Assembly: GCF_965638725.1 (NCBI RefSeq)
Contig: NC_134970.1
Span: 2,857,001 to 2,921,000 of the forward strand
Reading direction: 5' to 3'
Length of the DNA: 64,000 nucleotides
Source of the DNA: Aptenodytes patagonicus
Lineage: Eukaryota; Chordata; Aves; Sphenisciformes; Spheniscidae
Part shown: one piece after another, positions 44,232-48,053 of the stretch
Numbering within the stretch: the first letter of the stretch is position 1
How the letters are laid out: every line of letters begins with the position of its first letter
Notes under the pieces: model-generated
The model's input: the letters and a program-made list of their open reading frames with translations, nothing else
Database searches by the model: none
What the model was told of the DNA's origin: nothing
Position numbers and translations under genes: made by a program

Positions 44232-45169
44232 ATGGTCTCTGTGAGTTGCCAGGAGCTGCTACCCTCCTTGACCAGCTCTTCCCTGCTAGAGAGCTTTGCC
44301 AGTGCTCTGCAACGCAGCATGCCGCCATCCCTTCTGCCGGGGCACGGCAGCGAGAGGGCGTCCAGCCACCCAGAAGGCTCTGGCCATCTCCTTGCAGGCA
44401 GCACCACCCCCTCTGAAGGCACCTTGCTCCCCCTGTCCAGTGCAAAGGGGGAAGACACAAAACACCAAGTCACTGTCTGCGAGGCTCACCTCAAGCTGCC
44501 CGACTTCTGTGGCAGCCTCTCCCAGGACTTCACTCCCACCCTGGAGGAGATTGAGGAGTTCCTAAGGGAGAAGGCTGAGTTCCTCAAAGATGAAGCAAGC
44601 GAGCTTCACCCAGCTGGAGGGAAGGTCGAGATCAAATCTGAGATCAGCTTAGGTAGCTCTGGGGGACAGCCTGTCTCCAGTGTGGTTCAAGAAGAAGAGG
44701 TCTCAAACGCTGCTCAGCCTGGAGGAACAGCTGATGGTAGTGACCAAGCAGTAGCCGCTGGGAGCATTCCTGTTGTCCTCCAAATCCAGCCTCTCCAGAT
44801 GGACAGTGGCAGCCCGCTAGCACAGAGTGCTACAGGTGGTGTCAGGGTGGCCCAGCTGGTTATCAGCTTGCAGGGCCAAAACCTGTCCCTCCTCCCTCAG
44901 GTCCAGCCCCCTGTGACCATCATGGACCAAAAGTATGTCAAAATTGCCCCCCTGCCAGTCGCCATGAGGCCAGAGGCACCGGGGGATGTGCAAGAGGTGG
45001 AGGCAATGCCCAAGTATCAGAAAGCCCCCCCTTCCCTCGTCCGCGTCCATAAGTGCTCGCACCCGGGCTGCGGCAAGATGTACACCAAGAGTTCCCACCT
45101 CAAGGCTCACTTTCGTCGGCACACCGGCGAGAAACCCTACACTTGTGCTTGGCCCAACTGTGGCTGGCG
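44232..45169 (+). CDS. KLF15-like coding exon 1
   Basis: This exon encodes residues 1-312 and two bases of Arg313: the Ser/Leu-rich N-terminus, the acidic TLEEIEEFL activation motif, the Gln/Leu-rich middle, finger 1 and the Cys half of finger 2 ([10 protein letters not shown]). The donor is CG|GTAAGT, a consensus match. The start ATG has A at -3 (AACAAATGG) and G at +4. Confidence 0.92.
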
Positions 45170-48053
45170 GTAAGTGGGAGCCGCGGGACACTGTGCAAAT
45201 GGGTGTCCCCACCAAAGGCCTGCCATTGCTTGCCAAGAGGCAGGAGAGCTGTTGGCTAGTGAAAATCCAGGATAAAATCACAGGATTTCTTTCCTGAGTG
45301 AATTATAGGTGAGAGCTGGAAGGAGGCCTGGAGGAGTAAAGTTTGTTGAGCGCTTTGTGTAGTTTTCACTCGGTCCAAAAGTGCTGAAATCCTCCAGCTG
45401 GGGAAGCGTAGCTGACACTCTCCCAAACACCGCAAATCCCCCTTGAACTGGGTGCCTAAACACCCTCTGGCCATACAGCTTTTCCAAGTGATGTTGTAGT
45501 TTTGCAAGCTTTCTCTGTCTGGCTCAGGACAATTTCTGCAGTTGGGCTACAAAAATGGCTTTTCCCATTAATGTTTGTCCCAGGAAATAGGAGTCTCACT
45601 GCTTCCTCGGGAGTCAGTGCATAGTTCTGTGTTTGTTTAGCAACCCTTTGCTTTCTCTTGCTGTTTGCCTGCCCTCTTGGCTGCTTGTATCCCTCAGACA
45701 CCTGTGGGCCTGTAGCGTATCTCCATGTTGCATTTACTTTTGTTTGCTTTGCACATGATGGTGGTTGTCGTTTTCTTTCATCTGTGTTCCCTAAATTAAC
45801 CCTGCTTTTTAATCTTGCTGCACTTCTCTGATTATTTTTCTGCCGTGGTGTTCGCTTCCTGGTACCGCGTACCTGTCCCGGGGGGCAGGATGCTCAGTAC
45901 AGCCTTTGGCAAGAAGGGCTAATAGTCCTCAGGTCTTGCGTAGCACTTTTCATCAGCAGATCTCAAAGCATATCACAAAGAAAACTGGTGCTGGCAGCAC
46001 TGAGCTTGCCTGGTTTCTTATGCAATGCTTTGGCATATGCTCGCTGCCTTGTTTCCCCGAATGGTGCGGTACGGCTTCTGTCTCAGCGTGGCGAAACTCT
46101 GGAAGGTATGAGGCTAGATCTGAATTTTGGGACTCCCTCTTGCCAAGCTGCTGTCCCTTTGCCATCAGCAATTGTCCCTCCATTTCACCTATAACCGCAG
46201 TACATGTTTATAGGCATCAGCTCCTTTTCCATTACCAACCAGTACTGCTGAACCCTCCTGCGCCGGACGCTCGGAGCCTGGGGATTGAGGAAGGGGACAA
46301 TGGCAACCACACAAGTATCACTTTTCCCTCTGGGAAGGAGGAAAGGGATGGTGCTAGCCTGTACGATGGCATCCTGCAGGGTTGCTCTGCTTCACTTGCT
46401 GCCCTGCCCTCCCCCTCCGTGGGAGCAGTTACACTATCGAGTGATGTACTCAGCTGCGGCTGGGGTTCTCCGGGCCGTGCTCCCTTTCCTAGATGTGGCC
46501 CTAACTGTAAATATATATGTCATTTCTCCTGGCCCTGCTTTCTATGAGGAGCTGAGACCTTGGAACTCACTTCTTGCAATAAAGCTGGAAAATAAGTCAG
46601 TGGTTTGTATGAAAGACCTGAGGATGGCCTTGGGACGCATTTTGTTTTCACAGAGCCCTTTGTGAGCAGGCGCAGTATTTACTGTACCAGGTGTAAGCTC
46701 GAAATCCTATCTCTGGGAGTCTGGGGTTACATCCGAAGCTCCTTGCTTTGTGCTTCTTTGCGTGGGCATGTTTCAGTCAGATGGAAAACCCCTTCCGTCC
46801 TAATACTCCTGCCATCTGTGTTGGCTCCTTAGAGGCAGCACAGGAGTAAATCCTGTCCAGCCCTCCTCTCCAGCACTCCCCTGACACTCGGACATGGACA
46901 GCATGCTGAAGTCACACCAACTCCCAGGCCTTGTTGATACCTTTGAGGTGACACTCATAAAACTGCTGTGGACCAACTCGCTGCAGCTGCCCCCAGGTCT
47001 GGATCTGTGTGTGCCGGGTGGAAGAAAGGGTGCAGGAGAATTAAGTGGGGACATGCATGTGGTTAAAGGGACTTTCTAGGCTGTTCAGCTGATCTGCTCC
47101 AGGTGTGGGAATTACACAGGCAAGCAGTCTGAACACTGGGTATTTCTGTGGTCCTTGTTACCGCATCCTCGGAACAGCAGTCAACTTGCTTCGGCATGGA
47201 AACCTCTGCTTCTGTGCCCCAGGCTGGGTGCGTTTGCTTTTCCTCCCTTGTGCTTGGTATTTAAGCCAGCTGACAGGCTGCTTCTCTCTCCCCAGCTCCC
47301 AGTCCAGCCCAGGCTGACAGTGAAAACTCGTGGCCATTCTGAGAAACAAGGGGACGCTCAGACTTTACAAGGAGAACCCACACTCTCCCAGGAAAAACAA
47401 GCCTTCTCTCAACAGCGATGCTCTTCTTGGCTGGATGTGGGAAGTTATAGTAAAGCCTTTCCACACAGGCTTCTGAACGGTGTCCTTCAGTCACTGCCAG
47501 CCTGGGCTGGTGCCCCAAAAAGCAATTTCTCTCAGCACCTGGCCTTGGGGCTGTCAGCTCCCAAAGGTTTCAGCAAGTCTAAAACAAAGGAAGGACATAG
47601 GTGGACAGTGTCCTTTAAGGAAAGAAATTAATTCTTTTCCTCTTTCCTCTCTCTAAATCACCCCTTGGAGGGGTTTATTTCTTTCCGTTCCTCCAGCAGG
47701 AGCCTGGGGTACCTGTGCCTCACTGGTAGATTGGATGGAGCGGAACAGAAGTGACCTGTCTAGGGTCACCCCAAGAGGCTGTGGCAGAGACAGCCTCCCA
47801 CATGCCGGGGTCCTCTTGTTCACTGTCCTGTCTAGCAGCGAAGGCTGGATCCACCATGCTTCCCTTCTCCCGCAGGTTTTCCCGATCGGATGAGCTCTCC
47901 CGTCACAAGCGCTCCCACTCCGGTGTCAAGCCGTACCAGTGTGCCGCCTGCGAGAAGAAGTTTGCCCGCAGTGACCATTTAGCCAAACACATGAAGATCC
48001 ACCGGGGCCAGCTGTACAGCCAGCGGACACTTCAGGGCGGCAGCAGAAGTTAA
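44232..48053 (+). CDS. KLF15-like Kruppel-like zinc-finger transcription factor
   Basis: Joining 44232-45169 and 47876-48053 gives 371 residues. Three C2H2 fingers end the protein: Cys275/Cys280/His293/His297, Cys305/Cys310/His323/His327 and Cys335/Cys338/His351/His355, with TGEKPY and SGVKPY linkers; the RSDELSRH and RSDHLAKH contact helices are those of the KLF/Sp class, which binds GC/CACCC boxes. Outside the fingers it matches KLF15 specifically: [12 protein letters not shown] (100-111, the acidic transactivation motif), IPVVLQIQP (179-187), [11 protein letters not shown] (207-217) and [11 protein letters not shown] (234-244). IKSE at 134-137 fits a SUMO site. It is shorter than human KLF15 (416 residues by memory) and has a different N-terminus. 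Its position beside SLC45A3 suggests a second, ancient KLF15 paralogue rather than KLF15 itself. The single-KLF15 alternative cannot be excluded from this window. Confidence 0.92.
45939..45985 (+). repeat. Ancient amniote repeat fragment in KLF intron
   Basis: 'GTAGCACTTTTCATCAGCAG' and then 'ATCTCAAAGCATATCACAAAG' match an old element reading 'TAGCACTTTTCATC ... GATCTCAAAGCRCTTTACAAAG' that is common in reptile and bird genomes. The copy is short but the two blocks are nearly exact. Confidence 0.55.
47745..47800 (+). repeat. MIR/L2-like ancient repeat tail fragment
   Basis: 'AGTGACCTGTCTAGGGTCAC' followed by 'CCAAGAGGCTGTGGCAGAGA' follows the 'GTGACTTGCCCAAGGTCACMCAG.AGGCTGTGGCAGAGC' block of old core repeats. 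It ends about 75 bp before the last KLF coding exon. Confidence 0.5.
47876..48053 (+). CDS. KLF15-like coding exon 2 (terminal)
   Basis: The acceptor TCTCCCGCAG precedes GTTTTCCCGATCGG, completing Arg313 and reading [20 protein letters not shown], the rest of finger 2. Finger 3 follows ([20 protein letters not shown]), then a short tail [14 protein letters not shown] and TAA at 48051. The intron interrupts finger 2 between its cysteine and histidine pairs. Confidence 0.93.

What the first reader, a model, noticed from the sequence alone, without database searches (positions are those of the whole stretch)
44232..48053. A KLF15 relative next to SLC45A3: probable ohnologue of KLF15 lost from mammals
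The protein shares KLF15-specific blocks outside the fingers ([37 protein letters not shown]), yet it lies between SLC45A3 and the presumed ELK4. In human, KLF15 sits at 3q21 near SLC41A3, while SLC45A3 sits at 1q32 near SLC41A1, and these regions are paralogous (PLXNA1/PLXNA2 is another pair). No KLF gene is known to me between SLC45A3 and ELK4 in human. The simplest reading is a 2R duplicate of KLF15 kept here and lost in mammals, with a changed N-terminus but a conserved activation motif and SUMO-type site.
Basis: partly seen in the sequence, partly recalled or inferred. Interest (0 to 1): 0.7.

Follow-up and report, generated by a model that had tools for sequence, protein, structure and literature searches.

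The report
Second KLF15-like gene beside SLC45A3
This stretch of a vertebrate genome carries an intact gene-switch protein related to KLF15, at a place where I know of no such gene in humans; it is probably an ancient second copy of KLF15, but the tree that would settle this could not be built here.

Summary
An intact three-finger KLF gene lies at 44232-48053 on the + strand: 371 aa in two coding exons, with a GT-AG intron inside finger 2, about 9.6 kb past the SLC45A3 stop codon. It is the KLF15 type. Its fingers match recalled human KLF15 at 69 of 83 positions, against at most 57 of 83 for 16 other recalled KLF/SP proteins. Its non-finger part aligns far above shuffles (0 of 500 reach it), and [10 protein letters not shown] matches the activation segment printed for rat KLF15.

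The ohnologue reading is probable but not proven. A chicken survey puts KLF15 on chromosome 12, while chicken chromosome 26 shares synteny with human chromosome 1. An extra gene is the simplest reading if the window is avian, which is not shown. Pikeperch has three KLF15-type genes.

This genome could not be searched for another KLF15: eleven genome-search runs did not complete. No full KLF15 sequence from another vertebrate was available. No ELK4 coding sequence was found in the window, and the SUMO-type motif is not at the recalled KLF15 position. New member of a known kind.

The parts
44232..45169 (+). First coding exon of the KLF15-like gene: divergent N-terminus, [14 protein letters not shown] activation-type segment, [20 protein letters not shown] and KIAPLPVA blocks, finger 1 and the start of finger 2
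   Evidence: translation and splice check; KLF15 comparison
45170..47875 (+). Intron (GT-AG, after the second base of a codon) inside finger 2; shows this is not a processed retrocopy
   Evidence: sequence
47876..48053 (+). Second coding exon: rest of finger 2, finger 3, C-terminal tail, stop codon
44124..44231 (+). Probable 5'UTR part of the first coding exon, after a likely splice acceptor (CTTGCAG), with an upstream ORF of 19 codons and a stop at 44124-44183
   Evidence: inferred from sequence, no transcript data
39101..40200 (.). CpG island upstream of the gene; possible promoter or first exon
   Evidence: G+C 0.59, CpG o/e 0.90; role inferred
40701..41800 (.). CpG island nearest upstream of the gene; probable promoter and non-coding first exon
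   Evidence: G+C 0.68, CpG o/e 0.80; role inferred
27500..34645 (+). SLC45A3, upstream neighbour, four coding pieces (first ending at 27665; 27929-28762; 30327-30592; 34187-34645)
   Evidence: 58-86% identity per piece to recalled human SLC45A3

Best explanation
This is an intact protein-coding gene for a second KLF15-type transcription factor, most likely a duplicate of KLF15 from the early vertebrate genome duplications, kept in the 1q32-type region beside SLC45A3 and absent from that place in mammals. Shown: gene structure, KLF15-type fingers and blocks, place beside SLC45A3. Inferred: the protein enters the nucleus, binds GC-box/CACCC sites with base-reading helices like those of KLF15, and activates transcription through the [10 protein letters not shown] acidic segment. 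It lacks the KLF15 N-terminal module, so its control and partners probably differ. Its age and its loss in mammals are inferred from divergence, published chromosome positions and recalled human gene order.
For: 371-aa ORF with clean GT-AG splice. Fingers 69 of 83 identical to recalled human KLF15, next best KLF1 at 57 of 83, among 17 recalled proteins compared (KLF17 and KLF18 left out). Finger helices TKSSHLKAH and SRSDELSRH identical to recalled KLF15; the third differs by one residue, ARSDHLAKH against ARSDHLSKH (read from the rows). Non-finger local score 221 against shuffle maximum 72. 14 of 21 residues, including [10 protein letters not shown], match the rat KLF15 activation segment printed in a paper (counted by eye). 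No match to the recalled first 66 residues of human KLF15 anywhere in the window at E 0.1. Chicken KLF15 on chromosome 12. Chicken chromosome 26 shares synteny with human chromosome 1 (CACNA1S, GPR37L1 and others). Pikeperch has three KLF15-type genes, one labelled klf15/klf15l.
Against: No tree with real vertebrate KLF15 sequences was possible. This genome was never searched for another KLF15. The species is not identified, so the chicken argument is by analogy. Two chicken surveys (13 and 14 KLF genes, each on ten chromosomes, none on chromosome 26) do not list this gene, so it may be absent, unassembled or unrecognised in chicken. Pei and Grishin suggest that the zebrafish pair KLF15a/KLF15b came from the teleost duplication, so the fish copies need not be this ohnologue. 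The finger-identity yardstick is weak: all sequences in it are recalled, and KLF2/KLF4, one of the eight pairs, is read as a tandem duplicate in PMC12070069.
Confidence: 0.75

Rival explanations
1. It is the one-to-one KLF15 orthologue, moved to the SLC45A3 region by rearrangement and fast evolving, with no other KLF15 in this genome.
For: KLF15 is its closest relative among the 17 recalled proteins compared. No second KLF15 was shown in this genome, because the genome search did not complete.
Against: 14 of 83 finger residues differ and the KLF15 N-terminal module is missing, more than expected of an orthologue (expectation from recall, not measured). Chicken has KLF15 on chromosome 12.
Confidence: 0.12
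2. It is a later, lineage-specific duplicate of KLF15 (segmental copy), not a product of the early genome duplications.
For: Only one sequence is in hand, so the age is not measured.
Against: It has an intron, so it is not a retrocopy. Divergence as large as recalled human KLF9/KLF13 (69 of 83) would need a very fast rate after a recent copy.
Confidence: 0.1
3. It is a decaying or non-expressed copy.
For: No transcript evidence was available; the start-codon context is only moderate (sequence, judged by eye).
Against: The ORF is open over 371 codons, its three fingers keep the C2H2 spacing, the blocks are conserved, the intron is clean and CpG islands lie upstream.
Confidence: 0.03

Closest known systems
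KLF15 (human 3q21, recalled; rat activation segment 132-152, PMC8047332)
   Same: Three fingers with nearly identical recognition helices; [10 protein letters not shown] segment; IPV-LQIQP, VAQL, LPQV and K-V-IAP-P-A blocks in the same order
   Different: Different place (beside SLC45A3), no KLF15 N-terminal module found, 14 of 83 finger differences from recalled human KLF15, different tail, SUMO-type motif at another position
Teleost klf15 paralogues (pikeperch klf15 and klf15l, Table 4 of PMC12673963; zebrafish KLF15a/KLF15b named in PMC3820594)
   Same: More than one KLF15-type gene in one genome; the pikeperch genes have three exons, as is likely here
   Different: Their sequences and neighbours were not available, so orthology to this gene is untested
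KLF5, KLF4, KLF1 and other KLFs
   Same: Three C2H2 fingers reading GC-box/CACCC sites (recalled)
   Different: At most 57 of 83 finger identities; other N-terminal segments (recalled)

Membership tests
KLF/SP family | Three C-terminal C2H2 fingers with lengths 23, 23 and 21 (definition recalled) | tested here: met
   fingers at residues 275-297, 305-327, 335-355; Pfam zf-C2H2, three stretches
KLF15 group | Fingers closest to KLF15 among KLFs | tested here: met
   69 of 83 against at most 57 of 83 for 16 others, recalled human sequences, KLF17 and KLF18 not included
KLF15 group | TLEEIEEFL activation segment and following non-finger blocks | tested here: met
KLF15 orthologue (one-to-one) | KLF15 N-terminal module (first 66 residues of human KLF15, recalled) | tested here: not met
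   no tblastn match in the window at E 0.1
KLF15 orthologue (one-to-one) | Location beside SLC41A3 (human order recalled) | tested here: inconclusive
   the neighbour found is SLC45A3; SLC41A3 itself was not sought in the window
2R ohnologue of KLF15 | Both copies present in one genome | not tested
   The genome search not answered
2R ohnologue of KLF15 | Split before the fish-tetrapod split in a tree | not testable with these tools
   no vertebrate genome collection is offered
2R ohnologue of KLF15 | The two loci lie in paralogous chromosome segments | tested here: inconclusive
   SLC45A3 adjacency shown; SLC41A1/SLC41A3 and PLXNA pairs recalled only; chicken chromosomes 12 and 26 from papers

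The most novel reading that the evidence does not exclude
A jawed-vertebrate-wide second KLF15 gene (a KLF15 ohnologue beside SLC45A3) that mammals lost and that published chicken KLF inventories missed, with a shared DNA target but a different N-terminal control region.
Probability: 0.6. Interest if true: 0.5.

Novelty: new member of a known kind. Interest (0 to 1): 0.38.

Why it matters
KLF15 is linked to muscle and fat metabolism (passages) and to cardiac remodelling. A retained second copy would mean that experiments on KLF15 in birds, reptiles or fish may be confounded by an overlooked paralogue, and that mammals work with one copy fewer. It would also correct the two chicken KLF inventories seen here, which list one KLF15 each.

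Tried and rejected
Rejected: processed retrocopy (intron at 45170-47875). Rejected: another KLF subgroup among the 16 compared. Rejected: chance similarity outside the fingers (0 of 500 shuffles).

Tried without result: ELK4, NUCKS1, RAB29 and CDK18 motifs in six frames (recalled), no match; recalled ELK4 ETS domain by tblastn at E 0.1, no match. CR1-type octamers (six recalled patterns) and reverse-transcriptase motifs (recalled), no match. Repeats (seed 14, minimum 25): 8 direct families and 10 inverted pairs, mostly homopolymer runs or short two-copy pairs; diverged repeats would be missed. Rfam 0 matches, tRNAs 0. Genome-contig scan with the finger region: 20 pattern stretches, none a relative. 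Position of SLC45A3 in chicken: not found in passages of PMC4326283 and PMC7318453. Paper searches for a described second KLF15: nothing in the listings or passages that I saw describes a KLF15 copy beside SLC45A3; two searches listed 15 of 55 and 12 of 37 papers. Antin 2010 is not held.

Full report
What is there. The window holds an intact KLF gene on the + strand at 44232-48053. The coding exons are 44232-45169 and 47876-48053, joined across a GT-AG intron that interrupts a codon of finger 2; the product is 371 aa. A likely splice acceptor precedes 44124, so a non-coding first exon is expected upstream, where CpG islands lie at 39101-40200 and 40701-41800 (roles inferred). Pfam reports C2H2 fingers. 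The PDB search lists KLF5 (2EBT), KLF4, KLF10 and human KLF15 finger 2 (2ENT) among the 60 hits shown of 204; the top-ranked hits are multi-finger proteins such as ZNF568 and WT1 with several matched stretches each.

Which KLF it is. Outside the fingers the local alignment to recalled human KLF15 scores 221, while 500 shuffles reach at most 72. The blocks are in KLF15 order: [41 protein letters not shown]. Independent of recall, the rat KLF15 activation segment printed in PMC8047332 (passage seen) matches at 14 of 21 residues, ten of them consecutive (count by eye). The first 66 residues of recalled human KLF15 have no match anywhere in the window (tblastn, E up to 0.1), so the N-terminus differs from that of KLF15 as recalled.

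Neighbours. SLC45A3 lies upstream on the same strand; its four pieces match recalled human SLC45A3 at 86, 68, 80 and 58%. A CpG island at 57801-60200 could be the promoter of the next gene, which recalled human gene order would make ELK4. I detected no interspersed repeat family, which suits a bird or another reptile but does not identify the species.

Ohnologue or moved orthologue. Three indirect lines favour an extra gene. First, 83% finger identity equals recalled human KLF9/KLF13, the lowest of eight recalled close pairs ranging from 83 to 95%; not all eight are ohnologues, since PMC12070069 (passages) reads KLF2/KLF4 as a tandem pair. Second, chicken KLF15 is on chromosome 12 at about 11.02-11.04 Mb (PMC10177326, passages, and one methods section); the other survey (PMC11394431, passages) also has one KLF on chromosome 12, not named in what I saw. 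Chicken chromosome 26 shares synteny with human chromosome 1 (CACNA1S, GPR37L1 and others; PMC4558521, passages); that SLC45A3 itself is on chicken 26 is recalled, and PMC4326283 and PMC7318453 (passages) did not show it. Third, pikeperch has three KLF15-type genes at three loci, one labelled klf15/klf15l (PMC12673963, passages), and Atlantic salmon has at least three, named klf15a, klf15b and klf15d (PMC12609175, passages), though teleost and salmonid duplications may explain these. Against: both chicken surveys list no KLF on chromosome 26, and one of them is inconsistent, with 15 members in its methods and 14 in its results. Pei and Grishin (PMC3820594, passages) suggest the teleost duplication as the source of zebrafish KLF15a/KLF15b. 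The direct tests failed for want of data: eleven genome-search runs did not complete (3, 7, 12, 20, 30, 35, 41, 44, 50, 54, 56), and a scan of bacterial and archaeal contigs gave no relative.

How it most likely works. The base-reading helices TKSSHLKAH and SRSDELSRH are identical to recalled KLF15, and the third differs by one residue (rows), so it should bind the same GC-box/CACCC sites. [10 protein letters not shown] lies in the KLF15 segment deleted as the activation domain in PMC8047332, so activation is the expected effect. Both steps are inferred from similarity. The changed N-terminus suggests different control. A SUMO-type motif is present (IKSE, residue 134) but not at the human position (VKQE after QIQP, recalled), so I do not count it as conserved.

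Novelty. My ten paper searches were made; some searches served other questions. Nothing in the listings or passages that I saw describes a KLF15 copy beside SLC45A3. Several listings were cut (15 of 55, 12 of 37, 10 of 19), subscription papers are mostly not held, and genome databases may already carry the gene as a predicted KLF15-like locus. I file it as a new member of a known kind, of moderate interest.

Noticed in passing
27500-27665: SLC45A3 similarity to the recalled human protein starts 18 bases before the in-frame ATG at 27518, so the true start codon of this gene is uncertain.
   Followed up: partly
57801-60200: Very G+C-rich CpG island (0.70, CpG o/e 0.93) in which I recognised no coding sequence; may be the promoter of the next gene.
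   Followed up: partly
7001-8300: CpG island about 20 kb upstream of the SLC45A3 coding start; possible SLC45A3 promoter.
   Followed up: no
44124-44183: An upstream ORF of 19 codons and a stop begins right after the likely splice acceptor of the KLF coding exon; it could damp translation.
   Followed up: no
54501-55000: A weaker CpG-rich stretch (0.57, CpG o/e 0.65) between the KLF gene and the large island at 57801-60200.
   Followed up: no
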